64,000 bases of DNA, taken from Cordylochernes scorpioides (lineage: Eukaryota; Arthropoda; Arachnida; Pseudoscorpiones; Chernetidae). The stretch lies in the NCBI GenBank assembly GCA_030710605.1, contig CP092886.1, positions 52,602,394 to 52,666,393 of the forward strand. The letters are read 5' to 3'. The translations under genes were made by a program, and so were the position numbers. This document shows positions 16,004-54,560 of the stretch, one piece after another; positions within the stretch are counted from its first letter, which is position 1; every line of letters starts with the position of its first letter. Under the pieces are notes generated by a model. That model did no database searches, had not been told where the DNA came from, and saw only the letters and a program-made list of their open reading frames with translations.

Positions 16004-16013
16004 ATTTAAATAA

Positions 16014-18191: not shown

Positions 18192-19885
18192 ACTTACGTG
18201 TTTCTTGTAAGTTCTCTGGGGAGTTAGGTGCGCTTTCGTGTTTCTTTTAAGTTCTCTGGCCAGTGAGGTGTGCTTTCGAGTTTCTTGTAAGTTCTCTGGT
18301 GTGTTAAGTCCACTTTCGGTTTCTTGTAAGTTCTCTGGTGAGTTAGGTTCACTTTCGTGTTTCTTGTAAGTTCTCTGGTTAGTTAGGTGTGCTTTCGAGT
18401 TTCTTGTAAGTTCTCTGGCGAGTTAGGTGTGCTTTTGGTTTCTTGTAAGTTCTCTGGCGAGTTAGGTGTGCCTTCAAGTTTCTTGTAAGTTTTCTAGCGA
18501 GTTAGGCGTGCTTTCGAGTTTTTTGTAAGTTCTCTGGCGAGTTAGGCGTGCTTTCGAGTTTCTTGTAAGTTCTCTGGCGCATTAGGTGCGCTTTCGAGTT
18601 TCTTGTAAGTTCTTTGGTGAGTTAGGTGCGCCTTCGAGTTTCTTGTAAGTTCTCTCACGAGTTAGGCGTGCTTTCGAGTTTCTTGTAAGTTCTCTGCCGA
18701 GTTCGGTGTGCTTTCGAGTTTCTTATAGGTTCTCTGGTGAGTTAGGTGTGCTTTCGAGTTTCTTGTAGGTTCTCTGGTGAGTTAAGTTCAGTCTCGGTTT
18801 CTTGTTAGTTCTCTGGCCAGTGAGGTGTGCTTCCGAGTTTCTTGTAAGTTCTCTGCCGAGTTAGGTGTGCTTTCGGTTTCTTGTAAGTTCTCTGGCGAGT
18901 TAGGTGTGCCTTCAAGTTTCTTGTAAGTTCTCTAGCGAGTTAGGCGTGCTTTCGAGTTTTTGTAAGTTCTCTGGCGAGTTAGGCGTGCTCTAGAGTTTCT
19001 TGTAAGTTCTCTGGCGAGTTAGGCGTGCTTTCGAGTTTCTTGTAAGTTTTTTGGCGAATTAGGTGCGCTTTCGAGTTTCTTGTAAGTTCTCTGGTGAGTT
19101 AGGTGTGCCTTCGAGTTTCTTGTAAGTTCTCTCACGAGTTAGGCGTGCTTTCGAGTTTCTTGTAAGTTCTCTGGTGAGTTAGGTGTTCCTTCGAGTTTCT
19201 TGTAAGTTCTCTGCCGAGTTCGGTGTGCTTTCGAGTTTCTTGTAAGTTCTCTGGTGAGTTAAGTTCACTCTCGGTTTCTTGTTAGTTCTCTGGCCAGTGA
19301 GGTGTGCTTCCGAGTTTCTTGTAAGTTCACTGGTAAGTTAAGTCCACTTTCGGTTTCTTGTAAGTTCTCTATGAGTTAGGTTAACTTTCGTGTTTCTCGT
19401 AAGTGTTATAGTGAGTTAGGCGTGCTTTTGAGTTTCTTGTAAGTTCTCTGGTGAGGATAGGTTCACTTTCGTGTTTCTTGTAAGTTTTCTAGTTAGTTAG
19501 GTGTGCTTTCGAGTTTCTTGTAAGTTCTCTCTCGAGTTAGGTGTGCTTCCGAGTTTCTTGTAAGTTCTCTGGTGAGTTAGGTCCACTTTCGGTTTTTTGT
19601 AAGTGCTCTGGTGAGTTAGGTCCACTTTCGTGTTTCTCGTAAGTTCTCTGGCGAGTTAGGCGTGCTTTAGAGTTTCTTGTAAGTTCTCTGGCGGGTTAGG
19701 TGTGCCTTCGAGTTTCTTCTAATTTCTCTGGTGAGTTAGGTGTGCTTTCGAGTTTCCTGTAAGTTCACTGGTGAGTTAGGTTCACTTTCGTGTTTCTTTT
19801 AAGTGTTCTAGTGAGTTAGGTCCACTTTCGTGTTTCTTTCAAATGCTTTGGCTAGTTAGGTCCATTTTTGGCTTTCTTGTAGGGA
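18192..19885. repeat. 40-bp minisatellite, about 42 units
   Basis: Consensus unit GAGTTAGGTGTGCTTTCGAG followed by TTTCTTGTAAGTTCTCTGGC. Units vary from 38 to 41 bp, and variants interleave: GGTCCACTTTCG, GGCGTGCTTTCG, GGTTCACTTTCG and a GGCCAGTGAGG form. Units decay toward the right end (19,800-19,885), while the left end is cut by the gap, so the true array is longer. Every unit contains GTAAGT, a 5' splice-site-like hexamer, on the plus strand. Confidence 0.95.
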
Positions 19886-20639: not shown

Positions 20640-20907
20640 ATTATAAATTACTTTATGTATTATTTACGAACGGAAAAATATGTCCAGTATAGCCTAGTGG
20701 ACATGGCATCTTCCCGGTAAGCGGAACACTGTGGGTTCGATTCCCATCCCTGGATACTTTTATTTTTCCCTTTATCATTACTCTTCACAATTCTTTCTTT
20801 CATACCTCATCTCTAAGGTTATAAATAATCGTTATTTCCCTTTAAAATAAATTTTGATTTTTCTTGAAAAGAAACACATGCGGTGTAATTTTCAAATGTC
20901 GTTTTAC
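20640..20907 (+). mobile_element. tRNA-Thr-like SINE, full copy
   Basis: A tRNA-like head (20,683-20,755) is followed by a body with CATTACTCTTCACAATTCTT, GAAACACATGCGGTGTAATT and the terminal GTCGTTTTAC. The same architecture occurs at 50,199-50,476, where target duplications define the ends. There is no poly(A) tail; the end is GTTTTAC. The head is preceded by CGAACGGAAAAATA in both copies, so the element extends upstream of the tRNA part. Confidence 0.72.
20683..20755 (+). tRNA. tRNA-Thr(GGT)-like SINE head
   Basis: Cloverleaf-like: acceptor TCCAG with CTGGA (only 5 of 7 pairs), D arm GCC/GGC, anticodon loop with CCGGTAA-like sequence (GGT anticodon, C instead of U at position 33), and T arm GTGGG-TTCGATT-CCCAT with an intact B box GGTTCGATTCC. 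The anticodon stem is poorly paired. I regard it as a SINE head, not a working tRNA gene. Confidence 0.55.
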
Positions 20908-26097: not shown

Positions 26098-29000
26098 TTG
26101 TACCGTCATAGACCGGTCACGCGACTGTGGCACTTGTACCACTATCCCTGTTATACCAACCTTACTAAATATACAATGCAATGGAGTCGACACCAACCTT
26201 TCACGTTCGTCCGACTAAATCCTTTCCGACCATCGACCTGCTCACATCCATCGCTCCATAGCCCGGTCACGCGACTGTCGCACATGTACCACTATCCCAG
26301 TTATACAAACCTTACTAAATATACAATGCAATGGAGTCGACACCAACCTTTCACGTTCGTCCGACTAAATCCTTTCCGACCATCGACCTGCTCACATCCA
26401 TCGCTCCATAGCCCGGTCACGCGACTGTCGCACTTGTACCACTATCCCAGTTATACAAACCTTACTAAATATACAATGCAATGGAGTCGACACCAACTTT
26501 TCCCGTTCGTCCGACTAAATCCTTTCCGACCATTGACCTGCTCACATCCGTCGCTCCATAGCCCGGTCACGCGACTGTCGCACTTGTACCACTATCCCAG
26601 TTATACAAACCTTACTAAATATACAATGCAATGGAGTCGACACCAACCTTTCCCGTTCGTCCGACTAAATCCTTTCCGACCATCGACCTGCTCACATCCA
26701 TCGCTCCATATCCCGGTCACGCGACTGTCGCACTTGTACCACTATCCCAGTTATACAAACCTTACTAAATATACAATGCAATGGAGTCGACACCAACCTT
26801 TCCCGTTCGTCCGACTAAATCCTTTCCGTCCATCGAACTGCTCACATCCATCGCTCCATAGCTCGGTCACGCGACTGTCGCACTTGTACCACTATCCCAG
26901 TTATACAAACCTTACTAAATATACAATGCAGTGGAGTCGACACCAACCTTTCCCGTTCGTCCGACTAAATCCTTTCCGACCATCGACCTGCTCACATCCA
27001 TCGCTCCATAGCCCGGTCACGCGACTGTCGCACATGTACCACTATCCCAGTTATACAAACCTTACTAAATATACAATGCAGTGGAGTCAACACCAACCTT
27101 TCCCGTTCGTCCGACTAAATCCTTTCCGACCATCGACCTGCTCACATCCATCGCTCCATAGCCCGGTCACGCGACTGTCGCACATGTACCACTATCCCAG
27201 TTATACAAACCTTACTAAATATACAATGCAGTGGAGTCGACACCAACCTTTCCCGTTCGTCCGACTAAATCCTTTCCGACCATCGACCTGCTCACATCCA
27301 TCGCTCCATAGCCCGGTCACGCGACTGTCGCACATGTACCACTATCCCAGTTATACAAACCTTACTAAATATACAATGCAGTGGAGTCGACACCAACCTT
27401 TCCCGTTCGTCCGACTAAATCCTTTCCGACCATCGACCTGCTCACATCCATCGCTCCATAGCCCGGTCACGCGACTGTCGCACATGTACCACTATCCCAG
27501 TTATACAAACCTTACTAAATATACAATGCAGTGGAGTCGACACCAACCTTTCCGTTCGTCCGACTAAATCCTTTCCGACCATCGACCTGCTCACATCCAT
27601 CGCTCCATAGCCCGGTCACGCGACTGTCGCACATGTACCACTATCCCAGTTATACAAACCTTACTAAATATACAATGCAGTGGAGTCGACACCAACCTTT
27701 CCCGTTCGTCCGACTAAATCCTTTCCGACCATCGACCTGCTCACATCCATCGCTCCATAGCCCGGTCACGCGACTGTCGCACATGTACCACTATCCCAGT
27801 TATACAAACCTTACTAAATATACAATGCAGTGGAGTCGACACCAACCTTTCCCGTTCGTCCGACTAAATCCTTTCCGACCATCGACCTGCTCACATCCAT
27901 CGCTCCATAGCCCGGTCACGCGACTGTCGCACATGTACCACTATCCCAGTTATACAAACCTTACTAAATATACAATGCAGTGGAGTCGACACCAACCTTT
28001 CCCGTTCGTCCGACTAAATCCTTTCCGACCATCGACCTGCTCACATCCATCGCTCCATAGCCCGGTCACGCGACTGTCGCACATGTACCACTATCCCAGT
28101 TATACAAACCTTACTAAATATACAATGCAGTGGAGTCGACACCAACCTTTCCCGTTCGTCCGACTAAATCCTTTCCGACCATCGACCTGCTCACATCCAT
28201 CGCTCCATAGCCCGGTCACGCGACTGTCGCACATGTACCACTATCCCAGTTATACAAACCTTACTAAATATACAATGCAATGGAGTCGACACCAACCTTT
28301 CCCGTTCGTCCGACTAAATCCTTTCCGACCATCGACCTGCTTACATCCGTCGCTCCATAGCCCGGTCACGCGACTGTCGCACTTGTACCACTATCCCAGT
28401 TATACAAACCTTACTAAATATACAATGCAATGGAGTCGACACCAACCTTTCCCGTTCGTCCGACTAAATCCTTTCCGACCATCGACCTGCTCACATCCAT
28501 CGCTCCATAGCCCGGTTACGCGACTGTCGCACTTGTACCACTATCCCAGTTATACCAACCTTACTAAATATACAATGCAGTGGAGTCGACACCAACCTTT
28601 CCCGTTCGTCCGACTAAATCCTTTCCGACCATCGACCTGCTCACATCCATCGCTCCATAGCCCGGTCACGCGACTGTCGCACATGTACCACTATCCCAGT
28701 TATACAAACCTTACTAAATATACAATGCAGTGGAGTCGACACCAACCTTTCCCGTTCGTCCGACTAAATCCTTTCCGACCATCGACCTGCTCACATCCAT
28801 CGCTCCATAGCCCGGTCACGCGACTGTCGCACATGTACCACTATCCCAGTTATACAAACCTTACTAAATATACAATGCAGTGGAGTCGACACCAACCTTT
28901 CCCGTTCGTCCGACTAAATCCTTTCCGACCATCGACCTGCTCACATCCATCGCTCCATAGCCCGGTCACGCGACTGTCGCACATGTACCACTATCCCAGT

Positions 29001-30775
29001 TATACAAACCTTACTAAATATACAATGCAGTGGAGTCGACACCAACCTTTCCCGTTCGTCCGACTAAATCCTTTCCGACCATCGACCTGCTCACATCCAT
29101 CGCTCCATAGCCCGGTCACGCGACTGTCGCACATGTACCACTATCCCAGTTATACAAACCTTACTAAATATACAATGCAGTGGAGTCGACACCAACCTTT
29201 CCCGTTCGTCCGACTAAATCCTTTCCGACCATCGACCTGCTCACATCCATCGCTCCATAGCCCGGTCACGCGACTGTCGCACATGTACCACTATCCCAGT
29301 TATACAAACCTTACTAAATATACAATGCAATAGAGTCGACACCAACCTTTCCCGTTCGTCCGACTAAATCCTTTCCGACCATCGACCTGCTTACATCCGT
29401 CGCTCCATAGCCCGGTCACGCGACTGTCGCACTTGTACCACTATCCCAGTTATACAAACCTTACTAAATATACAATGCAATGGAGTCGACACCAACCTTT
29501 CCCGTTCGTCCGACTAAATCCTTTCCGACCATCGACCTGCTCACATCCATCGCTCCATAGCCCGGTTACGCGACTGTCGCACTTGTACCACTATCCAGTT
29601 ATACCAACCTTAATAAATATACAAAGCAATGGAGTCGACACCATCCTTTCCCGTTCGTCCGACTAAATCCTTTCCGACCATCGACCTGCTCACATCCATC
29701 GCTCCATAGCCCGGTCACGCGACTGTGGCACTTGTACCACTATCCCAGTTATACCAACCTTACTAAATATACAATGCAGTGGAGTCGACACCAACCTTTC
29801 CCGTTCGTCCGACTAAATCCTTTCCGACCATCGACCTGCTCACATCCATCGCTCCATAGCCCGGTCACGCGACTGTCGCACATGTACCACTATCCCAGTT
29901 ATACAAACCTTACTAAATATACAATGCAGTGGAGTCGACACCAACCTTTCCCGTTCGTCCGACTAAATCCTTTCCGACCATCGACCTGCTCACATCCATC
30001 GCTCCATAGCCCGGTCACGCGACTGTCGCACATGTACCACTATCCCAGTTATACAAACCTTACTAAATATACAATGCAATGGAGTCGACACCAACCTTTC
30101 CCGTTCGTCCGACTAAATCCTTTCCGACCATCGACCTGCTTACATCCGTCGCTCCATAGCCCGGTCACGCGACTGTCGCACTTGTACCACTATCCCAGTT
30201 ATACAAACCTTACTAAATATACAATGCAATGGAGTCGACACCAACCTTTCCCGTTCGTCCGACTAAATCCTTTCCGACCATCGACCTGCTCACATCCATC
30301 GCTCCATAGCCCGGTTACGCGACTGTCGCACTTGTACCACTATCCCAGTTATACCAACCTTAATAAATATACAAAGCAATGGAGTCGACACCATCCTTTC
30401 CCGTTCGTCCGACTAAATCCTTTCCGACCATCGACCTGCTCACATCCATCGCTCCATAGCCCGGTCACGCGACTGTGGCACTTGTACCACTATCCCAGTT
30501 ATACCAACCTTACTAAATATACAATGCAATGGAGTTGACACCAACGTTTCACGTTCTTCCGACTAAATCCTTTCCGACCATCGACCTGCTCACATCCATC
30601 GCTCCATAGCCCGGTCACGCGACTGTCGCACATGTACCACTATACCAGTTATACCAACCTTACTAAATATACAATGCAATGGAGTCGACACCAACCTTTC
30701 ACGTTCGTCCCAGTAAATCCTTTCCGACCATCAACCTGCTCACAAATACAATCGCTCTATAATTCGGTCACGTGA
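26098..30775. repeat. 150-bp satellite array, about 31 monomers
   Basis: Monomer landmarks in order: GCCCGGTCACGCGACTGTCG, CACATGTACCACTATCCCAG, TTATACAAACCTTACTAAAT, ATACAATGCAGTGGAGTCGA, CACCAACCTTTCCCGTTCGT, CCGACTAAATCCTTTCCGAC and CATCGACCTGCTCACATCCA. The period is exactly 150 bp over most of the array; single-base losses occur near 27,551 and 29,595. Because 150 is a multiple of 3, frames of 489 and 600 codons stay open, but frameshifts and a stop at 29,331 show they are not maintained. Internal monomers are nearly identical, and the edges (before 26,500 and after 30,540) are diverged, typical of satellite homogenisation. It is far more GC-rich than its flanks. Confidence 0.96.
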
Positions 30776-31261
30776 ATCAGTGCACTCGCACCAACATTCT
30801 AAAACATGCCATGCTAAATTAAATATCACGAAGTTGTCACTGATATATGCCACGTTTTTTGTCTATTGTACCTATCAATTATTTCCTTTCATTCTATATC
30901 TTTAAGCCTGCCACGTGACTTGGGTTATTTGTACCAGTCTCTTTATTTAATGCCATTCTGAATAAAATATCATTAAGTCGTAACCAATATATCTGAAACT
31001 TTGTCTAATTAGTGTTTCTCATCTCACACACATACCCATTTTCAATATTCCACACTAAGCAATTAAAGCAATCGTCTATTCCTAAACCATCAAATATTGT
31101 TTATTATAATTCGGAAAATATATATTGGTTCAACAACATATCAGATTCATTAAGTTTCCGCGATTTTATTTCAAATATTCAGAGTGTTTTATATGGATTT
31201 GGGGCACATCAATGCTGACTAAAAAGGTAAAAAGGAAAATATTTACATAATTAAAATCTTT
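30776..31261. other. Satellite flank, no gene seen
   Basis: About the first 60 bp are still satellite-like, then AT-rich sequence with no recognisable feature. Confidence 0.45.
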
Positions 31262-31400
31262 AAAAAAAGGCATATATTGTATCAAAATATCATTTATTTT
31301 ACCAATATTTCAGTTGGCTGAACGCCAACCTTTATCGAGTATTTTGATATTTTGATCCAATATATGCCTTTTTAATTAAAGATTTATTTATGGATTGCTC
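31262..31400. repeat. Short foldback family B derivative
   Basis: Contains AAAAGGCATATATTG, ACCAATATTTCAGTTGGCTG and, inverted, CAATATATGCCTTTTT followed by TTTATGGATTGCTCTATTTT. The inner arms of the 16-kb copy are missing. Confidence 0.7.
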
Positions 31401-32900
31401 TATTTTTTTTTTCAAAATAATTAAAAGCGTTTATTTTTATATAAGAGGCTACTTAATCTAATATCGTTATATTGAAGTTGAACAATTCTATTGTGTGTAT
31501 TTTTTTTTTCGGATGTCGTTCTAATTAGTTGAACAGGACCGATATATACCTGAGTAATACTTTTGGGCATCACACAAATTAATAAGTGTTATAACCGGTT
31601 CAAAGAAGACCCCACATTATGGATAGCGAGCCAAGTTACGGGCGGTCTTCAACAATCCGAAATGAGCAGGTCATTTCCAAGTGATGCGTCTGTGGTGATG
31701 CGGGACTGTCGTGTGACTATCTGATAAATATCAGAAGAGTTGGAGATCAGTAACCTTTTAACCCATTCCATCTATATATAAGAAGTGAAAATATTCTAGA
31801 GCGCGATATTCTCTTTTTCGAATAGAATCATCTAGTATCATTCCGGAAGGGCGTGGGCCTGAAAGAATTAAGGCTGAATAATTTTATCTTTAAAATCTCG
31901 ATGGAAAACTCAGAAGTTGAAATCGAGGAGTTCACTCCGAGATCGCAGGTGAATCAACTACATGGATGGGGAGTTAATGTTGGAAACTGTTCTCATATTG
32001 CAATAAATTGTGGCTATAGTCAAAAAAACAATTAATCTCCTCTCTCTTAATTCCACATTCTACTAGTTTGAAAACTAGTCAACTCTCCAAAAGAGAAAAC
32101 AAACATAAATGTTCCGTCTATTGAAAATATTATGATCGTTTGGAAATGTATATATATATATTTATTTATGTGTGTGTGTTTGTATGTGTGTGTTGGAAGA
32201 ACCTTTTATTTATCAAAATCCGAATATACATAGGGATGCAGGGAGGTGTCGAAGGGAGTGTCACTAAGATGTCGCCTCTACAGAACGCTGACATTCCTGC
32301 GATAAAAGAACGTGCCGTGAGGAATTTATCGTGAGATAGAAAGAGAGTTCCATTAGCTCCCTGGAGCAGAACCCCGGATGGACCGACCGGCCAATAACAG
32401 TAAGGCTAAAGTGGCCGGTACATCCAAATTTATTTACACGCTGCCGGATAATGGCAAGCCTCTCCTCCCAGAGAATAATTTCCTTTAATTGTCCTTCATT
32501 TATCTTTCCTTCGTTATCTGGCACGCGGAATGTTTACCGGCATGCCATTGGTGCCGTAAATAAACTATCAGGCCTTGGGTACCATCATCTATAGCAGGGA
32601 ATTCAAATAAATGCTACAAAATTTCGACTTTTTAGTCCAATGCGAAGGTGATGTATAATTTTATTGAATATTTGTAGACTTGATTCAAATTAAATCAATA
32701 TACTATTCAAATAGGAAGCATTAGAACGCTCTCTGTATAAATAAATTCGTACTTTTTATAGCGCTAGGTTTCGTAGATCAAACAGACAAACCGCTGAAAT
32801 ATTTCACTTCTGATGAGCCAGGCCCTCTCAATATTTTATCATTGCAGAAAGGCAGGCGAATCTTATTCATATTTGAATCTCATTTCCTTCCTTCCTTCAA
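31401..32900. other. Intergenic, one microsatellite
   Basis: TA then TG microsatellite at about 32,148-32,195. A GC-richer segment at about 32,265-32,580 has an 86-codon minus-strand frame without recognisable motifs. No gene supported. Confidence 0.45.
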
Positions 32901-38330: not shown

Positions 38331-38732
38331 TATATATATACACAAGTATATACTCATAAGTATATACTCATACATAAGTATATACTCTAAGTTTATTTTA
38401 CTTCTATTAAATGGTTTAAGAGACCTTTGTTTAAAATGAAATTAAATATAAGGTCGTTGCATATAAATATCATTGCGGCGTTTTTTTCCACGATTTTTAA
38501 AATGAAGTTAGTGTCATGTTCAAAATATTCAAAGGAAATATTCTATTCGTACTTAATCCTTTAGAGATGGATTTACCACAAAGTTTTGCAGAGGAGAATA
38601 GTAAAGAAAGTAAAAGTTATTTGCATATTGATATATGATAATAAATATATATGTAATGCAAATAATATATGCCTTTTTACTATATAATGATTTAAGTATG
38701 GATTGCTCTATTTTCAGAAGATAATATATATA
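38331..38732. other. Arm sequence with family B end
   Basis: TA-rich microsatellite, then sequence mirrored at 54,565-54,840. At about 38,667-38,725 TATGCCTTTTTACTATATAA and TATGGATTGCTCTATTTT are the end of a family B element; the right arm has a different version at 54,465-54,560. Confidence 0.5.
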
Positions 38733-39113
38733 TATGTGAAAAAATGCACGATAAGTAGATGCCTTTTTCTTAATTTATGCACCTTATCCCAGTACAATAT
38801 TACATTTGTACTATTTTTCACATTTTGTAGCGTTCTCACGCAATTCTGGCCTTAACTACCCGTTTCATGATTTTTCGGGATGCCTTAATGACCAATTTTT
38901 TGGTCGTTGAGGTACAGCTTGCACCACGCTGATGAGGGCCAACAGCCCGAAACGCGTCCGTGGTTAGCTTTTCTTGATTAATCAAGAATGGGTATTTGGC
39001 CAATTCTTGAATAATTAAAAATCAACGAGAATAGTTGATATTTATTCCGATAGATGGCGCAAGCCATCAGCAACTTTCAGTTGCACGATAAATAGATGCC
39101 TTTTTCTTAATAT
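38733..39113 (+). mobile_element. Retrozyme-like hammerhead repeat (left arm only)
   Basis: Begins near TGTGAAAAAATGCACGATAA and ends TGCACGATAAATAGATGCCT plus TTTTCTTAAT. The first and last 30 bp (38,745-38,774 and 39,082-39,111) are direct repeats with one difference, 337 bp apart: the piece is slightly more than one unit of a tandem or circular template. It carries a full type I hammerhead, a TTGATTAATCAAGAA palindrome and AGATGGCGCAAGCCATC. No protein is encoded. Size, terminal direct repeat and ribozyme type match the metazoan retrozymes described by Cervera and de la Pena, thought to be mobilised by Penelope-like reverse transcriptases. The right arm lacks it. Confidence 0.75.
38924..38963 (+). 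ncRNA. Type I hammerhead ribozyme
   Basis: All conserved positions are present. Stem I CCACG (38,924-38,928) pairs with CGTGG (38,959-38,963). The core CTGATGA (38,929-38,935) is followed by stem II GGGC/GCCC with loop CAACA (38,936-38,948), GAAA (38,949-38,952), and a minimal stem III ending in GTC (38,956-38,958), with predicted cleavage after 38,958. Outer stem I may extend through AGCT (38,916-38,919) with AGCT (38,966-38,969), leaving the internal loop typical of natural hammerheads. Stem III in one monomer is only two pairs, but ACGCGT is self-complementary, so two tandem copies could pair it and cleave as a dimer. Confidence 0.88.
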
Positions 39114-39719
39114 ATATATATACAAGAACCTAATTAAGAAATTAAACCCGGATTTGCAAAAAAAGTCCACAAGAAAAAAGATACAAATAATCAAAAGAAA
39201 ATCACTAGTATTAACATATGAAAAATGGATAAATAAGCCGTCATTAAGAGAGAGATATTTTGTTGCTAAAATTATCGAACCAAACAACAACAATCCTCTT
39301 TTTATATAATGAAAATACGGCAAAGTAACAATTAGCCATCGCTCAAGTTGAAACCGGTCATTATAAAACGCGCAGACGACGGAAAAGTTTAACCATCAAA
39401 TTCTGTACGACCAGACACTTTTGGCGACCATGGAAGAGGAACCGTGAGAGTTTGGCAAGAAGTATTTTGGCCGAAGACTTCACACTTTAGACCATTCGAC
39501 CATCTTATAACATATTAAAAACTCGACAGCAGAGAATGTTGACTTTTCTGTAATCTGTTGAATAAATCTGTATTAAATATTTAACAACCCATTACTCCGA
39601 GGGTAGAAAAAATATATAATGATAACTTTGTATTATTTAGCGAATAGTTTATATTGTTACATCACAGGTTTGAGATGTGTTTTTTAATATACGAGGAGTA
39701 ACAAAACAACTCACACATT
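39114..39719. other. Arm sequence, no gene seen
   Basis: Mirrored at about 53,830-54,415. AT-rich; the minus-strand frame at 39,042-39,323 also exists in the right arm but has no motif beyond hydrophobic, AT-driven composition. Confidence 0.45.
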
Positions 39720-42794: not shown

Positions 42795-43030
42795 ATATAT
42801 ATATATGAAAATAGCACAAAATTGAATTTTTTACTTGGATCAGGTGGATAAATTAAGGACAAAAAGGCATTTCCTGATCTTCAACTAAAGGGTGCTGATG
42901 GCTTGAGCCATATATCGAAATAAATACCAATTAATCATTGATTTTTAAATATTCCAGATTTGGCCAAATACCGTGGTAATAACCAAATACCTTGATTGGT
43001 CAAAAACGTACTTTTTCATGAAGAGTCTCT
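42795..43030 (-). mobile_element. Hammerhead-repeat fragment without ribozyme core
   Basis: On the minus strand: TTGACCAATCAAGGTATTTG, TATTTGGCCAAATCTGGAAT, GCTCAAGCCATCAGCACCCT, GATCAGGAAATGCCTTTTTG and ATTTATCCACCTGATCCAAG, all shared with the family around 38.7-39.1 kb. The catalytic core is absent. Mirrored at 51,585-51,800. Confidence 0.65.
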
Positions 43031-43759
43031 TGTTTAGGAATAATTGTTCTTTGGTTCTGATAGGAAGAAGGAATGGCCTGCTATATGATAATGTATTAAT
43101 GAAACAACTGTCTTGATTGTCGATATTTGTTCATGTTCTATTATTCTTAAGTTTTAATTTCTGCTAGTGTGTGTTTCAGCTATATATTTGCTTTATTATT
43201 TTATTAACAGTTGCAAACAAGGCACGCTATATCCGATCTGGAAAATTGCGCGTGAAATTATTTACAATAATTCATATTGTAGTAGAGTAGGTAACAGAAT
43301 TATCAAAAAGAAAATAAACAATTAAGAAAGAGAGCATTTATTAAACAAATAAGCAACAACATGAGAAGAGAGAAGAAATATATTTGCTTTGGAATACCTT
43401 CATTCTATGGAGTATATGACATGCTTAATAATAATAGGATAATTACTTCTATTGTTTTTGTTATATTCTTTGAATAGCAATAGTGAAACCAGATGTACGC
43501 GCGCATGCCTTAACAATAACTACAGATTATTAGGTAATCCTTGCTCTCATCGCTATATATCCTAGAATTCTATATTTATTCATTTGTTCCTTTAATTTAT
43601 ATATATTTTGAAAATTTTCCCATTTGCTTCTAATAATAAAAAAAATGAAAACAAAAATTTTATATATTCATAGCATTTTTGTGAAATTAAGTGAAATACA
43701 TGATAGCATTAAATTATATCAACTCCTGTTGCTGGCGATTTATTGTATCATGATTTATC
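43031..43759. other. Arm sequence, no gene seen
   Basis: AT-rich, mirrored at about 50,860-51,580. No gene recognised. Confidence 0.45.
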
Positions 43760-43982
43760 TTTAAGAAAAAGGCATCGACTGACCGTGTAATTAAAAGTTG
43801 GTGATGGCTTGTGCTATCTATCGGAATAAAATATATAAATATCGGCCAAATACCATTCTTGATTGATCAAGAAAAGCTTAACCACGTACGCGTTTCATTT
43901 GCACGATCAGGAGATGTATTTTTCTTAATTTAACCACCTGATCCCAGTATAATTTCACTTTTGTGTTTTTTTCACATATATA
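43760..43982 (-). mobile_element. Truncated hammerhead-repeat fragment
   Basis: The minus strand has only the 3' ribozyme part: GAAACGCGTACGTGG (43,882-43,896), i.e. GAAA, stem III ACGCGT, a GTA cleavage triplet and stem I CGTGG, then TTTTCTTGATCAATCAAGAA. CTGANGA and stem II are lost. At 43,897-43,982 a second piece, in plus orientation (GCACGATCAGGAGATG and ACCACCTGATCCCAGT), is joined to it. Confidence 0.65.
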
Positions 43983-44330
43983 TGTGATATGATCCTGTCG
44001 ACTCTTCTGTGATATGATCCTGTCGACTTTCAATGTGGCACTATAGTGATAATAATGTGGTGAGTGAGAAATAAGGAAACAACAAGTTTGGAAGATGGAA
44101 CCTGGAAGCCATCCGAGAAAGAGGGAGGTAGCGAGAGGGCTGTCCGCTGAACGAATGCCTGTGTGGCCACCCGCGACTACCAAAATAGTCCCCCCAGGTG
44201 TTGACGGGCGGGGCCCCTTTTACCGCCCCTTTGGAATGTGATGTCTAAAGTGTCTCGCTTTAGCTGCCCATCTCTCTCTCGTTGGCTGTAGGTTTGTTTT
44301 ATTAATCCTGGAAGAGCATATATTATGACA
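43983..44330 (+). repeat. 5' LTR
   Basis: Starts TGTGATATGATCCTGTCGAC (unit repeated twice), contains CTACCAAAATAGTCCCCCCA and GGGCGGGGCCCCTTTTACCG, and ends TATTATGACA. The next bases, TATGGCCCCCGTTGAAG, would hold the primer-binding site; I could not match them to a tRNA. Confidence 0.85.
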
Positions 44331-46471
44331 TATGGCCCCCGTTGAAGAAGGCTGAACATGGTTTGAGTATACTTAAAGCTGGAGAAGCCAGGAATAGAGA
44401 AAATAATTTTACAGTTGAAATTAGTTAAGGTAATGGTGACATAGTTTTATGTAAATAAAATATTGTATAGTACACAAGTAAATATTATTTACAAGCAGTT
44501 TTACAAAACCGGAGAGTTTGACATTTAAGGAAATCTTTGAAAATATCAAGGTTATAAAAGGCTATATACAACAAAATCTAATGTACTATATGGGAAATGA
44601 TATTGAGGAGTGTGAACAAGGAGAAGGGGAGTCACAAACACATGATGAAATTCTGGAGATCATTAAGGTTGGGGAACTCTACACTTTAAGCTATTTTTCA
44701 GGCGGACATGGCAAGGGGAAACTTGTCATGGGCTTTCTATGCTATAAGTGTAGAGTACGAGAAATGAGATTGAGGTTGGCAATTGTGTGAGCTCAGGACT
44801 GAGGTAAATATAAAACTACATAGAATGTTAGAACCTCGGCGAACAGAGCGAGGGGAAACTTGCCCTGGGCCATCTACCTTATCTATGTAGTTACTTGTGT
44901 AGCTAGTCCGAGGGGAAAAGTCCCGTGTGTAGGTGAGGAAGTCGAATGGACTTATATTTAATTTGTGGAAAGTATGCGCGCACAGTGCCAAAAATTGGGA
45001 CGAGGACTGCGTTGTCCGTTACAAGTGACAAGCTGCTCGGACACGAGGTGTTTGAACCGTCGTGGGAGCTTGTGCAAGGCGATAATTTCGCGGTGGGTTG
45101 AAAGTAAGACCCATGTCTGCGCGAAATGATGACGGACCGGACAGATTCAGCGACGATGTTTAACGTACCTCCGTGGGAAATATCGAAGGTAGGCTATATC
45201 GTGCTGGTTTGGACAATGGACAAACATAGATTTGAAGACAGGGTCCGTGTGGCGAACGTGTGGCGCGAGAAGAAGAAGCGAACTGTGTCGCTCGATGCAG
45301 ATTGTTCAAGTGCGAACAAAAAGTAGTTGATAAACATCTAGTAGTTAGTCAATCTGCATCCTGTGACGAACACGCCATTGGCTAGATGGTGTGGGTCGGT
45401 GGATATGCTAGAGATGAACTACGGAATATATTATCATAAATGAAGGGCGATGGTTAGGATTTTGAAATGACAATATAGAAGTTCGATAATTGATTAACCA
45501 ATAATTCTCTATAAAGGTCCTGAGCTGGTATAAGGTTGACAAGGTTGTAAGAATGAGTGGGACATTAAGGGGAAGATAGATAAGAGTCACCAAGGGTTGG
45601 TTGTAAGCAAGGCTCACGTGGTGGTTGGAATTATTCGACGCCTGAATTACAGGGTGAATTTTGAATCGATTAGGGAAAGAAATTATTTTTCGTGAGCCGT
45701 GCTTACAAGTAGGAGAGGTCATATACAAATAGGAATACAAAAGTTTAGGTGCTGGAGGCAAACTTTTATAAATAAATTGATTATGAAAAATCTATTGTTA
45801 ATAGTAAAAATCGTAGAGCATTAATAGGTTGAATTCCTTTTTTTTTAAGTTACGTTAAAATGGAAATTATTTAATTAAAATGACGATTGTTAAATTCTAC
45901 TGGTAAGGTAACTAATTAAATGAGTTACAAATATCTAGATAATTGATATGGAGAATAAAATCATTGTTAATAGGCGTGGAGAGAATAAATGGAGCTAATT
46001 ATGTAAATATTGGGACAATTTACAAGGAATGACTTATTTAAAGAGTGAATGGTAGGAGTTAAAACAATTACACTCACGAGTTATGTTGGTTTAGGGCGCA
46101 GGTAAGTTCATTGAGCTTCGGGAGAGTTCTGTCTGTGACACTGTGCGTACCAGTGTTGTACATCACAGTAGCGGCAGGGATACGGCGGAGTCTTGTCCAT
46201 GATGGAGGAAGGTGTCCTGCCCTGGCACGGTGGTCGTTCTTGGGTAGATCTAGTGCTGGAAGAAGTGAATGGCAGCTCCATCTCCGTCGTAGGCGAATAC
46301 TTCTTCAGGGTAACGGTTCAAAAGTTGGCGAGGAAGGGGTTGAGGGCTCGAAGAGGAGTGGTTACAGTTGAGTTGGGTTTGGTCGATCATCGTGGCTTGG
46401 CTCCTTGTTTCTTCATACTCCGGTATATGAGGGATTCGCTTCCCGGCCAGGTCTTATCCTGTCGACTCTTC
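44331..46471 (+). other. Internal region of the LTR element, no pol
   Basis: About 2.1 kb of moderately GC-rich sequence. A 90-codon frame at 44,518-44,790 is the longest on the sense strand; a 117-codon frame on the antisense strand (45,408-45,761) is probably chance. No zinc knuckle, DTG or YXDD is seen. Confidence 0.6.
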
Positions 46472-46819
46472 TATGATATGATCCTGTCGACTCTTCTGTG
46501 ATATGATCCTGTCGACTTTCATTGTGGCACTATAGTGATAATAATGTGGTGAGTGAGAAATAAGGAAACAACAAGTTTGGAAGATGGAACCTGGAAGCCA
46601 TCCGAGAGAGAGGGAGGTAGCGAGAGGGCTGTCCGCTGAACGAATGCCTGTGTGGCCACCCGCGACTACCAAAATAGTCCCCCCAGGTGTTGACGGGCGG
46701 GGCCCCTTTTACCGCCCCTTTGGAATGTGATGTCTAAAGTGTCTCGCTTTAGCTGCCCATCTCTCTCTCGTTGGCTGTAGGTTTGTTTTATTAATCCTGG
46801 AAGAGCATATATTATGACA
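46472..46819 (+). repeat. 3' LTR
   Basis: 348 bp matching the 5' LTR with a few substitutions. An extra partial CTTATCCTGTCGACTCTTC unit sits just upstream. Confidence 0.85.
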
Positions 46820-47099
46820 TATATATATTTTTTTCCTGTAGAAGAGGTTAGGTGCCCGAAAGCTAGAGATTTTTGTGAATTGCATTTCCAAAAATAAACT
46901 TATCCCTGAAAGGTTGATATTTTCATCCTGATATTTCTACAAGGGATTATTTTATTGACAAATGTTTAGAGATTAAAATGTATATATTTAGGACACATAG
47001 CTAGCGCTTTGAACTATTTTCAACAAAATAATACCTAATCCTTGAAACTATCATTTTTATCTTTTATAATTTTCTATTTGTGTTAACTCGTGTGTCTAT
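46820..47099. other. Arm sequence with an empty SINE site
   Basis: Mirrored at 50,150-50,695 except for the SINE found only in the right arm. The unoccupied target AACTATCATTTTT is at 47,046-47,058. Confidence 0.7.
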
Positions 47100-47208
47100 T
47101 CATGTATTAAGCATATTTACGCAAGTTTGGCCTTAAACACCCATTTCTTGGTTTATCAAGAAGCCTCTGAGACCAAATATCTTTTTGGTCGCAGTGGTAC
47201 AGCCTGTT

Positions 47209-47244
47209 CCACGCTGACGAGCGCCAACAGCGCGAAACGCGTTC
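47209..47244 (+). ncRNA. Hammerhead ribozyme, 5' part, interrupted
   Basis: CCACG (stem I), CTGACGA (core, N = C), GCGC-CAACA-GCGC (stem II and loop), GAAA, then CGCGTT with a GTT cleavage triplet. The 3' stem I strand CGTGG belongs after the SINE at 47,568-47,572. The stem II sequence differs from the 38.9-kb copy but still pairs, which is compensatory change supporting a real RNA fold. Confidence 0.8.
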
Positions 47245-47558
47245 TTTTTTTTTTTTAATTTTCCCTAGTACACGTGGGATTGGCCATGATAATCATAGTG
47301 GGTAGTTAGCGACTGCTTTTACTGTAAGCGCACCACATGTCTACACATGTGAAAAGCAGTTCGACTTTGCACTTACAAATGTGCCAGAACCCCGTTTGGT
47401 TACTTGCAGTCGCTGGTGGGGTTGGACTTTTGCAAGAATCGGGGGCCATTGTGGCATTATTTTTAAATCAGAAAAAAGTGTCCAATGCGGGAATCGAACC
47501 CGGGTCGTAATGGTCGAAAACCAAAAGGTTTAACCAACCTTCCACCGACCCCTTCTTA
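47245..47558 (-). mobile_element. tRNA-headed SINE (family 1)
   Basis: On the minus strand the head GGTTGGTTAAACC and exact B box GGTTCGATTCC (in CCGGGTTCGATTCCCGC) are followed by a body with ATTGGACACTTTTTTCTG and TGTAGACATGTGGTGCGC, and a poly(A) tail (poly-T at 47,245-47,256). The target duplication AAACGCGTTC lies at 47,235-47,244 and 47,559-47,568. The tRNA part does not fold as a complete cloverleaf, so it is not a functional tRNA. Confidence 0.9.
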
Positions 47559-47725
47559 AAACGCGTTCGTGGATGGCTTTTCTTGATTTATCAAGAAAAT
47601 AGGTTGGCAAAATATCAGGGAACATGCTGAATCAATGTTTAGTTGATTTCTGTTCCACTAGATGGCGCTCTGCCATCTAAAAAGCACGTGCGCTCCTGGT
47701 CGGGATATGCCTTTATTATTTTAAA

Positions 47726-48890
47726 TAATTTTATATTGAGTAAACCAAACTAAATATATTATATATATGAATGTTTCACAAAGTTAGTTAATTACATAAG
47801 TATAAAAAACACATTGTTGGCGAAACACTCATTATTAATATAGAAATATCGCAAAATCAACTTCATAAATATATATTACCTTATATATTCTCAGTGTATA
47901 TATTATTGGTGCGCTTCTGGAGTCTTTTGTTTACATGTCACATTTTAACTTACTGTCTACATCTTATGGATTTAATTGTAATCTTTAACAACTTAATTTT
48001 ATTAACTTTCATGTATAATTATTTTTACATAATTTTGTTTTGTATAATTATTTTTCATAATTTTTGTATCGTTGAATTTGCATACTTTTGTTTCCTGTTT
48101 TTTTTTTATTATTTTAGACAATAATCTTTAGTTAAAAAGTGTTAAAAAGGCTTCTCGGATGTTTTCTCCCAGTACATCAGATCACAAGCGCAACAATATA
48201 CGAAAGGTATTTGTGAAATGTATTAAGACAACAAACGAGAATAGAATTGTGAAATAATAGAGTTTCCTTTAAAAAGAAAGAAAGTAATCAAATCTCTAAA
48301 TAAAAACTATTTTTTCCAAGATATCTATAACTAGCTCGATAGAAATATGAAACTATAATTAATTAAAGAGATTGGAATAACGGAGTAAATTTTCTTTATC
48401 GTATAAGGAGGAGGGAATTCGTTGTAGAATCCTTTCTGAAACAATTGGAGGGATTTATTGAAAGTTGTTCGTTTATTTAATAAACGCCAAGGTATAAAAT
48501 CAATCTTCCTTCTTTATTAGCTCATTTTTTTGCTTTCACTCTCTATAGCAGTTTTATCAAAGATATATATATAATATTAAGAAAAGGCAATGTTACATTT
48601 GTACTATTTTTTCATATATAATATATATAACAATCTTCTATTAAATATTGTTTTCACATATGTTATCTTATTTCCATTTATTTTCAATATATAATATTAC
48701 TTGAAAAGTTTCTCAATAGTTTCAGTAAACAATTGAATAAACCTACTTAGAAATATGCTATATACTTTGCTATTTTAAATATATATTATAGTTTTGTTAA
48801 CACAATAACTTCTTTTTTTTGGCACTATTACATCTAGTAATACCGTTTTCATGTAAAATTTGAATTTTAACGAAGCCTTTTCACGTGTTC
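47726..48890. other. Inner arm and spacer, no gene seen
   Basis: 47,726-48,310 is mirrored at 48,991-49,600. 48,311-48,890 has no partner and ends at the gap. Short frames such as 47,894-48,124 (mirrored 49,185-49,412) are hydrophobic, AT-driven and differ by an indel between arms, so I do not call them genes. Confidence 0.55.
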
Positions 48891-48990
48891 NNNNNNNNNN
48901 NNNNNNNNNNNNNNNNNNNNNNNNNNNNNNNNNNNNNNNNNNNNNNNNNNNNNNNNNNNNNNNNNNNNNNNNNNNNNNNNNNNNNNNNNN
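48891..48990. other. Assembly gap (100 N) at the palindrome centre
   Basis: Exactly 100 N. The right arm begins on its first base after the gap, matching left-arm position 48,310, so the right-hand contig starts within duplicated sequence. Confidence 0.98.
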
Positions 48991-49768
48991 AATAGTTTTT
49001 ATTTAGAGATTTGATTACTTTCTCTCTTTTTAAAAGAAACTCTATTATTTCTCAATTCTATTCTCGTTTGTTGTCTTAATACATTTCACAAATACCTTTC
49101 GTATATTGTTGCGCTAGTGATCTGATGTACTGGGAGAAAACATCCGAGAAGCCTTTTTAACACTTTCTAACTAAAGATTATTGTCTAGAATAATAAAAAA
49201 CAAGAAACAAAAGTATACAAATTCAACGATACAAAAATTATGAAAATAATTATACAAAACAAAATTATGTAAAAATAATTATACATGAAAGTTAATAAAA
49301 ATAAATAAATTGTTGAAGTTACAATTAAATCCATAAGATGTAGACAGTAAGTTAAAATGTGACATGTAAACAAAAGACTCCAGAGAGAGAAGCGCACCAA
49401 TAATATATACACTGAGAATATATAAGGTAATATATATTTATGAAGTTGATTTTGCCAAATTTCTATATTAATAATGAGTGTTTTGCCAACAATGTGTTTT
49501 TTATACTTATGTAATTAACTAACTTTGTGAAACATTCATATATATAATATATTTAGTTTGGTTTACTTAGTTTGAGTCAAAAATGACTCAATAGAAAATT
49601 ATTTGAAATAATAAAGGCATATCCCGACCAGGAGCGCACGTGCTTTTTAGATGGCAGAGCGCCATCTAGTGGAACAGAAATCAACTAAACATTGATTTAG
49701 CATGTTCCCTGATATTTTGCCAACCTATTTCCTTGATAAATCAAGAAAAGCCATCCACGAACGCGTTT

Positions 49769-49999
49769 TAAGAAGGGGTCGGTGGAAGGTTGGTTAAACC
49801 TTCTGGTTTTCGACCATTACGACGCGGGTTCGATTCCCGCATTGGACACCTTTTTCTGATTTAAAAAACAATGCTCCAATGGCCCCCAATTCTTGCAAAG
49901 ACATGTGGTGCGCTTACAGTAAAAGCAGTCGCTAACTACCCACTATGATTATCATGGCCAATCCCACGTGTACTAGGGAAAATTAAAAAAAAAAAAAAC
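49769..49999 (+). mobile_element. SINE family 1 copy with internal deletion
   Basis: Same insertion as 47,245-47,558, seen from the other arm: target duplication GAACGCGTTT at 49,759-49,768 and 50,000-50,009. About 83 bp are missing between CTTGCAAA and GACATGTGG near 49,900, so it is 231 bp instead of 314. The B box is intact. Confidence 0.88.
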
Positions 50000-50035
50000 G
50001 AACGCGTTTCGCGCTGTTGGCGCTCGTCAGCGTGG
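50000..50035 (-). ncRNA. Hammerhead ribozyme, 5' part, right-arm copy
   Basis: The minus strand reads CCACG, CTGACGA, GCGC-CAACA-GCGC, GAAACGCGTTC, as in the left arm. It is interrupted by the same SINE; the distal stem I strand CGTGG lies at 49,754-49,758. Confidence 0.78.
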
Positions 50036-50198
50036 AGCAGACTGTACCACTGCGACCAAAAATATATTTGGTCTCAGAGGCTTCTTGATAAACCAAGAAA
50101 TGGGTGTTTAAAGCCAAACTTGCGTAAATATGCTTAACACATGAATAGACACATGAGTTAACACAAATAGAAAATTATACAAGATAAAAATGATAGTT

Positions 50199-50476
50199 GT
50201 AAAACGAAAATTGCAATTATACCGCGAATGTTTCTTTTATACAAAAATCGAAATTTATTTTCAAAGAGAAATAGCGACTATTTCTAACTTTAAGGATGAA
50301 GTATGATAGGATGAATTGTGAAGAGTAATGGCGAACGGAAAAATAAAAGTGTCCAGGGGCGGGAATCGAACCCACAACCTTCTGCTTACCGGGCAGGTGC
50401 CATGTCCACTAGGCTACCCTGGACGTATTCTTCCGTTCGTAAATGATATTTTAAATATATATAATAAATATTTTTA
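50199..50476 (-). mobile_element. tRNA-Thr-like SINE (right arm only)
   Basis: Flanked by AAAAATGATAGTT at 50,186-50,198 and 50,477-50,489. The left arm has a single copy of this target and no element. On the minus strand: an AT-rich leader, CGAACGGAAGAATAC, the tRNA-like head, CACTTTTATTTTTCCGTTCG, CATTACTCTTCACAATTCAT and a GTTTTAC terminus without poly(A). Full length is 278 bp. It is related to the 20.5-20.9 kb copies. Confidence 0.9.
50351..50424 (-). tRNA. tRNA-Thr(GGT)-like SINE head, well folded
   Basis: A 73-nt cloverleaf: acceptor TCCAGGG with CCCTGGA (7 of 7), D arm GCC/GGC, anticodon stem CTGC/GCAG with loop CCGGTAA (anticodon GGT; C at 33), and T arm GTGGG-TTCGATT-CCCGC with B box GGTTCGATTCC. 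It lies inside a mobile SINE. A working tRNA-Thr cannot be excluded on fold alone, but C33 and the context argue against it. Confidence 0.6.
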
Positions 50477-50699: not shown

Positions 50700-50840
50700 G
50701 GAACCGCGTACGTGGTTATGATTTTCTTGATTAATCAAGAATGGTATTTGGCCGATATTTATATATTTTATTCCGATAGATGGCGCAAGCCATCACCAAC
50801 TTTCAATTACACGGTCAGGAGATGCCTTTTTCTTGAAGAG
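50700..50840 (+). mobile_element. Truncated hammerhead-repeat fragment, right arm
   Basis: GCGTACGTGGTTATGATTTT, TCTTGATTAATCAAGAATGG, AGATGGCGCAAGCCATCACC and CGGTCAGGAGATGCCTTTTT. Only the ribozyme 3' end (GCGTACGTGG) remains. Partner of 43,760-43,892. Confidence 0.65.
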
Positions 50841-51584
50841 GAATCATGATACAATAATCGCCATTAACAGGAGTTGATATAATGAAATACATGTATTTCA
50901 CTTAATTTCACAAAAATGCTATAAATATATAGAATTTTCATTTTCATTTTTTTTATTTAAATATTAGAAGCAAATGGGCAAATTTCAAAATAGATTTCAA
51001 AAAGGTAACAAATGAATAAATATAGGATTCTAGGATATAGCTATGAGAGCAAGTAATACCTAATAAGCTGTAGTTATTGTTAAGGCATGCGCGCGTACAT
51101 CTGGTTTCACTATTGCTATTCAAAGAATATAACAAAAACAATAGAAGTAATTATCCTATTATTATTAAGAATGTCATATACTCCATAGAATGAAAGTATT
51201 CCAAAGCAAATATATTTCTTCTATCTGCTCATTTTGTTGCTTATTTGTTTAACGTACGTGTTTATTCAATGCTCTTTTTCTTAATTGTTTATTTTCTTTT
51301 TGATAATTATGTTACCTACTCTACTACAATATGAATTATTGTAAATAATTTCACGCGCAATTTTCCAGATCGGATATAGCATGTCTTGTTTGCAACTGTT
51401 AATGAAATAATAAAGCAAATATATAGCTGAAACTAGCAGAAATTAAAACTTAGAATAATAGAACATGAACAAATATCGACAATCAAGACAGTTGTTTCAT
51501 TAATACATTATCATATAGCAGGCCATTCCTTCTTCCTCTCAGAACCAAAGAACAATTATTCCTAAACAAGAGACTCATCATAAA

Positions 51585-51800
51585 AAAGTACGTTTCTTGA
51601 CCAATCAAAGTATTTGGTTATTACCACGGTATTTGGCCAAATCTGGAATATTTAAAAATCAATGATTAATTGGTATTTATTTCGATAGATGGCGCAAGCC
51701 ATCAGCACTCTTTAGTTGAAGATCAGGAAATGCCTTTTTTTCCTTAATTTATCCACCTGATCCAAGTAAAAATTCAATTTTGTACTATTTTCATATATAT
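51585..51800 (+). mobile_element. Hammerhead-repeat fragment, right arm
   Basis: Partner of 42,795-43,030: TATTTGGCCAAATCTGGAAT, AGATGGCGCAAGCCATCAGC, GATCAGGAAATGCCTTTTTT and ATTTATCCACCTGATCCAAG. No ribozyme core. Confidence 0.65.
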
Positions 51801-53830: not shown

Positions 53831-54464
53831 TTACTCCTCGTATATTAAAAAACGCATCTCAAACCTGTGATGTAACAATATAAACTATTTCGCTAAATAA
53901 TACAAAGTTATCATTATATTTTTTTTCTACCCTCGGAGTAATGGGTTGTTAAATATTTAATACAGATTTATTCAACAGATTACAGAAAAGTCAACATTCT
54001 CTGCTCTCGAGTTTTTAATATGTTGTAAGATGGTCGAATGGTCTAAATTGTGAAGTCTTCGGCCAAAATACTTCTTGCCAAACTTTCATGGTTCCTCTTC
54101 CATGGTCGCCAAAAGTGTCCGGTCGTACAGAATTTGATGGTTAAACTTTTCCGTCGTCTGCGCGGTTTATAATGACCGGTTTCAACTTGAGCGATGGCTA
54201 ATTGTTACTTTGCCGTATTTTCATTATAAAAAAAGGATTATTGTTGTTTAGTTGGAGAATTTTAGCAACAAAATATCTCTCTCTTAATGACGGCTTATAT
54301 ATCCATTTTTCATATGTTAATACTAGTGATTTTCTTTTGATTATTTGTATCTTTTTTCTTGTGGACACACTTTTGCAAATCCGGGTTTAATTTCTTAATT
54401 AGGTTTTTGTATATATATATATATATATATATATTGTTCTGAAACTAGAGCAACCCATACTTAA

Positions 54465-54560
54465 ATCATTAGATAGTAAAAAGGCATATATAGGATTGAA
54501 TAAAATATTAGCAAATAAATATTTTATTCAAACCAATATATGCCTTTTTACTATCTAGTA
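54465..54560. repeat. Foldback family B short copy
   Basis: TAGTAAAAAGGCATATATAG and, inverted, ATATGCCTTTTTACTATCTA around a 40-bp centre; preceded by AGAGCAACCCATACTTAAAT, the family tail. Confidence 0.65.

What the first reader, a model, noticed from the sequence alone, without database searches (positions are those of the whole stretch)
38733..39113. Retrozyme-like element with a complete type I hammerhead ribozyme
Every conserved hammerhead position is present in a short non-coding repeat whose ends are 337-bp spaced direct repeats. That combination (about 300-400 bp unit, type I, minimal self-complementary stem III ACGCGT, terminal repeat) is the published description of metazoan retrozymes, known to give circular RNAs. 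The copy is present in one arm only, implying recent movement. The sequence of this family in this genome may be undescribed.
Basis: partly seen in the sequence, partly recalled or inferred. Interest (0 to 1): 0.9.

Follow-up and report, generated by a model that had tools for sequence, protein, structure and literature searches.

The report
Hammerhead retrozyme with Penelope-style insertion ends
A short non-coding repeat in an animal-like genome carries a well-formed self-cutting RNA, and the ways its copies begin and end look like the work of a Penelope-type jumping gene, which bears on the open question of what moves these elements.

Summary
About 38,735-39,111 is a 337-nt non-coding unit plus a 34-nt repeat of its start, with a complete type I hammerhead at 38,916-38,969 (cleavage 38,958/38,959), absent from the mirror arm. 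One (D) carries the same hammerhead, split by an insert. Against left-arm D, all 9 differences in 60 nt are neutral to the fold: three compensatory pairs plus loop 1, N7, H17. The sense circle folds far better than shuffles (z = -7.8). 'Retrozyme-like' is well supported. What is new lies in the ends: resolved copies stop at one of two sites 49 nt apart, the first in the loop of a covarying stem; four begin with inverted sequence ending at the other site; 12 of 16 ends lie beside TA repeats. This resembles the published Penelope-like signature (optional 30-40-bp tail, internal initiation, both strands extended, AT-rich targets). Best reading: a non-autonomous retrozyme copied from circular or tandem RNA by a Penelope-type enzyme. 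No GIY-YIG domain appeared in 20 of 32 ORFs scanned, no genome was held, and cleavage is untested. This single-hammerhead copy cannot free a circle alone.

The parts
38735..39111 (+). Element A: about 10 nt of inverted end (TGTGAAAAAA, 38735-38744), then 337-nt unit plus 34-nt repeat of the unit's start
   Evidence: edges set by comparison with the empty right-arm site, ambiguous by several bases in TA repeats
38916..38969 (+). Type I hammerhead ribozyme; predicted cleavage 38958/38959; stem II 38936-38939/38945-38948; ACGCGT stem III 38952-38957
   Evidence: (Rfam HH9 26.5 bits, E 3.4e-4)
38745..38778 (+). Left copy of the 34-nt direct repeat
39082..39115 (+). Right copy of the 34-nt direct repeat; reaches End1 (about 39110) and runs into the TA flank
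38750..38788 (+). Covarying stem-loop (stem 38750-38756/38782-38788; innermost pair mismatched in A); End1 (about 38773) lies in its loop
38812..38823 (+). End2 site (TATTTTTCACAT): the second point at which copies stop
39053..39068 (+). GATGGC/GCCATC hairpin about 40 nt before End1; no compensatory change; one of 8 aligned rows (E) does not fit, and C left and B left have a broken or changed pair or loop
40918..41110 (.). Relative E: inverted segment ending at rc(End2) joined to sense segment ending at End1; not found at the aligned right-arm site
42802..42972 (-). Relative B, left arm: runs through End1 to End2 and TA repeats
51628..51799 (+). Relative B, right-arm counterpart
43741..43978 (.). 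Relative C, left arm: rc(End2) inverted segment joined to sense segment from just upstream of the cleavage site to End1
50701..50845 (+). Relative C, right arm (no inverted segment)
47119..47744 (+). Relative D, left arm: second hammerhead, split at 47245-47558 by an insert with AAACGCGTTC on both sides (47235-47244, 47559-47568)
49590..50125 (-). Relative D, right-arm counterpart, same insert
48570..48616 (+). Miniature relative: rc(End1) joined directly to End2 sequence, in TA repeats (weak: profile E = 0.78; blastn 24 nt at 95.8%)

Best explanation
The feature is a non-autonomous, non-coding retroelement of the metazoan retrozyme kind. Tandem source copies elsewhere would be transcribed; the type I hammerheads cut the RNA once per 337-nt unit, probably working as pairs because stem III (ACGCGU) is too short to form alone; and the unit is ligated into a circle (all inferred). 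A Penelope-type reverse transcriptase-endonuclease then cuts TA-rich DNA and starts reverse transcription inside the RNA, at End1 in the loop of a conserved stem-loop or at End2 49 nt further on, from both cut strands (inferred from the footprints). This gives inserts with a short tail, a partial second turn of the unit, and inverted opening segments (these are seen in the sequence). The present copy is a dead-end product with one hammerhead.
For: Hammerhead complete. All 9 differences between A and left-arm D in 60 nt are neutral: 6 form 3 compensatory pairs, the others are loop 1, N7 and H17; 73 of 200,000 random 9-substitution sets kept all pairs and core. 3 of 16 pairs change on both sides; 15 of 500 shuffles reach this, slid versions 0. 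Sense circle -104.2 kcal/mol against -66.3 +/- 4.9 for 200 shuffles, none as low. Insert longer than one unit, as a circular or tandem template would give. Stem GATCAGG/CCTGATC predicted de novo with 2 covarying pairs and End1 in its loop (18 of 500 shuffles reach this). End1-End2 49 nt; cleavage to End1 152, to End2 201 nt. A, left-arm C and E pair rc(End2) with End1; the weak miniature copy pairs rc(End1) with End2. 12 of 16 hand-set ends lie beside TATATA against 7.2% of random positions. Empty right-arm site. PLE signature to match: PMC11167929 (text parts 1-2 of 4 read) and PMC3846280 (12 of 26 passages seen).
Against: No GIY-YIG domain in the 20 of 32 ORFs (120 aa or more) scanned; their reverse-transcriptase hits (RVT_1) were not typed, so they neither show nor exclude a PLE. 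No genome was held to search. The End1-End2 spacing (49 nt) exceeds the 30-40 bp quoted for PLE tails. Ends were set by eye; 4 of 16 are not beside TA repeats, among them the right end of C in both arms. Arm pairs are not independent copies. The left ends of B and D and the right end of D are not resolved. Target-site duplications cannot be read in TA repeats. No tandem array of the unit lies in the window. The minimum-energy fold of A's isolated 60 nt is not the hammerhead, though stems I and II are kept. No RNA data; cleavage untested.
Confidence: 0.62

Rival explanations
1. It is a solo pseudo-LTR of a Penelope-like element: the same machinery, but the unit is a piece of an autonomous element and not an independent retrozyme.
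For: PLE pseudo-LTRs carry type I hammerheads upstream of internal initiation sites, tails and inverted copies (PMC11167929, PMC3846280). The order hammerhead, start site 1, start site 2 is the same. The very short stem III is also a PLE trait (PMC7761336, passages). Right-arm C is open in one frame over 140 nt from the cleavage region to End1, and left-arm C has a single stop in that frame.
Against: In the anole PLE the region after the hammerhead is the start of the ORF; in A no frame stays open from hammerhead to End2, nor in either arm of B or D over the stretches translated. The open frame of C is unremarkable: 1,416 of 5,000 random 140-nt stretches of the window are open in at least one of three frames. 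Some indels between relatives are of 1 nt. PLE hammerheads are described as lacking helix III or loop-loop contacts, whereas A and D have an internal loop in stem I, though contacts were not tested. The copy runs past one full unit.
Confidence: 0.2
2. A retrozyme moved by a LINE, with inverted opening segments from ordinary twin priming.
For: Inverted 5' segments also arise in LINE insertions (recalled); PMC7229834 names LINEs or PLEs as candidates.
Against: No poly-A or constant 3' tail in the copies seen; two alternative internal stop sites used on both strands; AT-rich targets and tail fit PLEs better.
Confidence: 0.12
3. A MITE-like DNA transposon with imperfect terminal inverted repeats at a TA target; the hammerhead is chance.
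For: Ends of A form a 25-nt, 80% inverted pair and lie in TA repeats.
Against: Copies do not share ends, A has direct repeats from a partial second turn, and the hammerhead shows three compensatory changes.
Confidence: 0.04

Closest known systems
Metazoan non-LTR retrozymes (Cervera and de la Pena 2020, PMC7229834)
   Same: Non-coding unit of 170-400 nt, low G+C (39% here), type I hammerhead, strongly self-paired circle
   Different: Published copies are described as tandem units; these are dispersed, 1.1 units or less, with a tail and inverted opening segments
Axolotl retrozyme hammerhead (HHR_Amex1, described in PMC7229834)
   Same: Stem III with one pair and a palindromic tetraloop, expected to need a dimer
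   Different: The sequences were not compared; the window looks invertebrate (mariner, other reverse transcriptase and integrase genes; inference)
Penelope-like elements, e.g. Poseidon of Anolis (PMC11167929) and Adineta Penelope (PMC3846280)
   Same: Hammerhead (Poseidon) upstream of two internal initiation sites, optional tail, inverted segments, AT-rich targets, short stem III
   Different: No ORF found in the unit; internal loop in stem I; 49-nt instead of 30-40-nt tail
Rfam Hammerhead_HH9 (RF02275)
   Same: Best Rfam match, positions 1-77 of 77
   Different: 26.5 bits against a gathering score of 52

Membership tests
Metazoan non-LTR retrozyme | Complete type I hammerhead core and stems | tested here: met
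   Rfam score below gathering
Metazoan non-LTR retrozyme | Non-coding unit of about 170-400 nt with low G+C | tested here: met
   337 nt, 39% G+C; longest stop-free stretch in the circular reading 57 codons sense, 61 antisense
Metazoan non-LTR retrozyme | Tandem arrangement of full units | tested here: not met
   Only 1.1 units in A; no tandem array of the unit in the window. Other genomic copies not available, so this lowers the claim for this copy, not for the family
Metazoan non-LTR retrozyme | Multicopy, mobile | tested here: met
   Relatives at several places in the window and an empty site in the other arm
Metazoan non-LTR retrozyme | Target-site duplication longer than 4 bp, when present | tested here: inconclusive
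   TA repeats on both sides hide it
Metazoan non-LTR retrozyme | Self-cleavage and circular RNA in vivo | not testable with these tools
   No RNA data
PLE-type insertion signature | Two internal 3' stop sites separated by a 30-40-bp tail, one in a stem-loop | tested here: inconclusive
   Two sites and a covarying stem are seen, but 49 nt apart and with ends set by eye on few copies
PLE-type insertion signature | Inverted segments with the tail at one end only | tested here: met
   A (about 10 nt), C left arm, E and the weak miniature copy
PLE-type insertion signature | AT-rich targets | tested here: met
   12 of 16 hand-set ends beside TATATA (9 of 11 without the second repeat family); 7.2% of random positions
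Solo pseudo-LTR of a PLE | Start of a PLE ORF after the hammerhead | tested here: not met
   No frame open in A, B or D; C right arm has one open frame, no more than chance gives
Solo pseudo-LTR of a PLE | Presence of a PLE RT/GIY-YIG partner | tested here: inconclusive
   No GIY-YIG in 20 of 32 ORFs of 120 aa or more; RVT_1 hits not typed; no genome held

The most novel reading that the evidence does not exclude
These copies are direct insertion-footprint evidence that a Penelope-type enzyme moves an animal retrozyme, and the retrozyme RNA carries its own docking module for it: a covarying stem-loop with start site 1 in its loop and start site 2 49 nt on, 152 and 201 nt after the hammerhead cut. 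The retrozyme would then be a circular-RNA parasite mimicking, or derived from, the 5' region of a PLE.
Probability: 0.5. Interest if true: 0.75.

Novelty: new variant of a known kind. Interest (0 to 1): 0.56.

Why it matters
What moves the animal retrozymes is unsettled: the 2020 paper names LINEs or PLEs and calls PLEs a strong candidate because both carry type I hammerheads, occur in tandem and live in the same genomes (PMC7229834, discussion read). Insertion ends are a sharper kind of evidence, since PLE initiation at two internal sites has been measured in vitro (PMC11167929). If the ends seen here hold genome-wide, the question can be settled by counting ends in public assemblies and by giving a purified PLE protein a retrozyme RNA. 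The parts of papers that I saw do not describe such ends for retrozymes. This rests on the searches in an open-licence library that lacks two main papers on PLE hammerheads, and no supplements were seen, so it is not a claim of absence from print.

Tried and rejected
Genome search: no genome held for the window. DNA patterns of the hammerhead core: 0 in viral contigs and 0 in genome contigs; a looser pattern gave 1 viral and 37 prokaryote stretches, about what chance gives for 18 fixed bases in such collections (my estimate, no call). I read 111 bases of L001 and none of the 37. Two module patterns gave 0 in viral contigs.

Considered and rejected: chance hammerhead (compensatory changes); tandem satellite; MITE (ends not constant); the notion that D was truncated at the cleavage site: it is an insert with a 10-bp duplication. 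The insert looks tRNA-derived by eye only; neither ARAGORN nor the Rfam scan calls a tRNA there. I also dropped the idea that B and C begin exactly at the cleavage site; the alignments there are too poor.

A second repeat family (about 16,005-16,362, 31,246-31,410, 38,664-38,716, 54,419-54,496) shows a similar plan by eye and is kept out of the main argument, except that 5 of the 16 ends counted come from it (3 of those 5 are beside TATATA; without them 9 of 11). The alignment A2 used 5 copies of the End1-End2 module, A3 used 8 rows of the region before End1; no row was dropped after aligning.

Full report
Observation. The stretch about 38,735-39,111 holds a 337-nt unit followed by a 34-nt repeat of its own start (34 nt, 94% identical, spacing 337). 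A complete type I hammerhead lies at 38,916-38,969, with predicted cleavage at 38,958/38,959. Rfam's best model is HH9, 26.5 bits, E = 3.4e-4 for 901 bases, below its gathering score of 52. The gathering-threshold scan of the window listed 3 matches (two tRNA, one U6) and no hammerhead. The bare core pattern occurs at 6 places; with stem rules only this site remains, and 2 of 200 shuffled windows held one. Motif evidence alone is thus good but not overwhelming.

Family. The window contains relatives in both arms of an inverted repeat. A profile from five copies of the End1-End2 module gave 14 hits at E up to 5: five seeds, four further pieces with E below 0.01 (E's sense half, C in both arms, A's right end), three weak pieces (D in both arms, the miniature copy, E 0.3-0.78) and two hits I take as chance (E 0.89 and 2.3). 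The reversed window gave none. Copy D carries a second hammerhead, split by an insert flanked by AAACGCGTTC. The insert looks tRNA-derived by eye; ARAGORN and Rfam call nothing there. After joining the flanks, A and left-arm D differ at 9 of 60 positions. Six form three compensatory pairs (two in stem I, one in stem II), and three fall at loop 1, N7 and H17, which the fold does not fix (recalled rules). Right-arm D also differs from A at 9 positions, one of them turning a C-G pair into U-G. In 73 of 200,000 random sets of nine substitutions pairs and core both survived; in 1,244 the pairs did, core regardless. The pair count gives 100% of cells paired and 3 pairs changed on both sides (15 of 500 shuffles reach that; slid controls 0). 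The two arms of D share one insertion event, so this is one independent comparison.

RNA. The sense strand of the unit, folded as a circle, reaches -104.2 kcal/mol against -66.3 +/- 4.9 for 200 shuffles (z = -7.8, none as low); the antisense strand gives -88.9, z = -4.2. This suits the 'highly self-paired' circles of published retrozymes (PMC7229834: abstract, text parts 2-3 of 6, discussion and passages read). The minimum-energy fold of A's isolated 60 nt keeps stems I and II but pairs core bases with the stem III region (-18.8 against -17.6 for the hammerhead with stem III open), which I count against easy cleavage by a single copy. Stem III, ACGCGU, equals one sure pair with a palindromic CGCG loop, the feature that the 2020 paper links to dimeric cleavage in axolotl.

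Ends. Laid side by side, the resolved copies stop at two places: End1 (GATGCCTTTTTCTTAA or close; A, C, E) and End2 (CTATTTTTTCA or close; B). At the other side A opens with about 10 nt of inverted End2, C (left arm) and E with long inverted segments ending at End2, and the miniature copy with inverted End1 while it stops at End2. So in these four copies one terminus uses End1 and the other End2. The left ends of B and D and the right end of D are unresolved. Sixteen ends, set by eye, were checked for TATATA nearby: 12 have it, against 7.2% of random positions; without the second repeat family 9 of 11, counting both arms of B and C. The right end of C lacks it in both arms. End1 lies in the loop of a 7-bp stem that RNAalifold finds unaided, with two pairs changed on both sides in five sequences (18 of 500 shuffles reach the same). 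In A its innermost pair is a mismatch. A second hairpin (GATGGC/GCCATC) before End1 is found in the alignment, with broken cells in some rows and no compensatory change.

Comparison. In the anole PLE, reverse transcription starts at two internal sites, most often in a stem-loop; the interval is the 30-40-bp 'tail'; both target strands are cut and extended; cuts favour AT-rich DNA; a hammerhead lies upstream (PMC11167929, parts 1-2 of 4 read). In that paper hammerhead mutants did not affect insertion in vitro, so the ribozyme need not act in the insertion step. In Adineta the tail is optionally present on one of two inverted pseudo-LTRs (PMC3846280, 12 of 26 passages seen). The copies here show a similar plan with a 49-nt interval. 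The unit does not look like a PLE ORF start: in A no frame is open from hammerhead to End2, nor in either arm of B or D over the stretches translated; right-arm C is open in one frame over 140 nt, left-arm C has one stop in that frame, and 1,416 of 5,000 random 140-nt stretches of the window are likewise open. PLE hammerheads are described as lacking helix III or loop-loop contacts (PMC7761336, passages): the short stem III here is shared with them, the internal loop in stem I is not.

Mechanism. Seen in the sequence: the ribozyme and its compensatory changes, the partial second turn, the two end sites, inverted segments, and the empty site in the other arm. Inferred: transcription from tandem sources, cleavage, circularisation, and PLE-type reverse transcription. 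A partial second turn suggests a circular or tandem template. This copy has one hammerhead and cannot free a circle by itself.

Limits. No whole genome was held, so copy number, a PLE partner and tandem sources are unknown. 20 of 32 ORFs of 120 aa or more were scanned with Pfam and gave reverse transcriptase, RNase H, integrase and mariner-type domains but no GIY-YIG domain; the reverse transcriptases were not typed. The two arms (93-97% identical in most stretches, 87% in one) meet near a 100-N gap and may be alleles. That the organism is an invertebrate animal is my inference from the mobile elements.

Verdict. The hammerhead sequence is real and the element is retrozyme-like. Its insertion ends point to a Penelope-type enzyme, a published suspicion for which such ends would be direct evidence.

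Noticed in passing
48891-48990: A 100-N gap sits close to where the two inverted arms meet; the arms (93-97% identical in most stretches) may be allelic contigs joined head to head, not a genomic palindrome.
   Followed up: partly
16005-16362, 31246-31410, 38664-38716, 54419-54496: A second AT-rich repeat family with ATATGCCTTTTT and CTATTTTTTTTCA-like ends and, at two places, inverted halves; its plan resembles the retrozyme copies and may use the same machinery.
   Followed up: partly
43985-46822: An insertion flanked by 349-bp direct repeats (99.4%), in the left arm only, whose one ORF of 120 aa or more has no Pfam hit: perhaps a non-autonomous LTR element beside retrozyme relative C.
   Followed up: partly
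47245-47558 and the right-arm counterpart: A SINE-like insert (tRNA-like by eye only) with an oligo-T end and a 10-bp duplication sits in the hammerhead of copy D in both arms.
   Followed up: partly
26107-30744: About 31 copies of a 150-bp tandem repeat, 97% matches, with stop-free stretches of 325, 495 and 604 codons.
   Followed up: no
18193-19861: About 42 copies of a 40-bp tandem repeat (also reported with a 477-bp period) beside a 100-N gap.
   Followed up: no
20683-20755 and 50349-50424: Two tRNA-like sequences on related repeats (82% alike); Rfam matches both, ARAGORN calls only the second (Thr), so they may be SINE parts.
   Followed up: no
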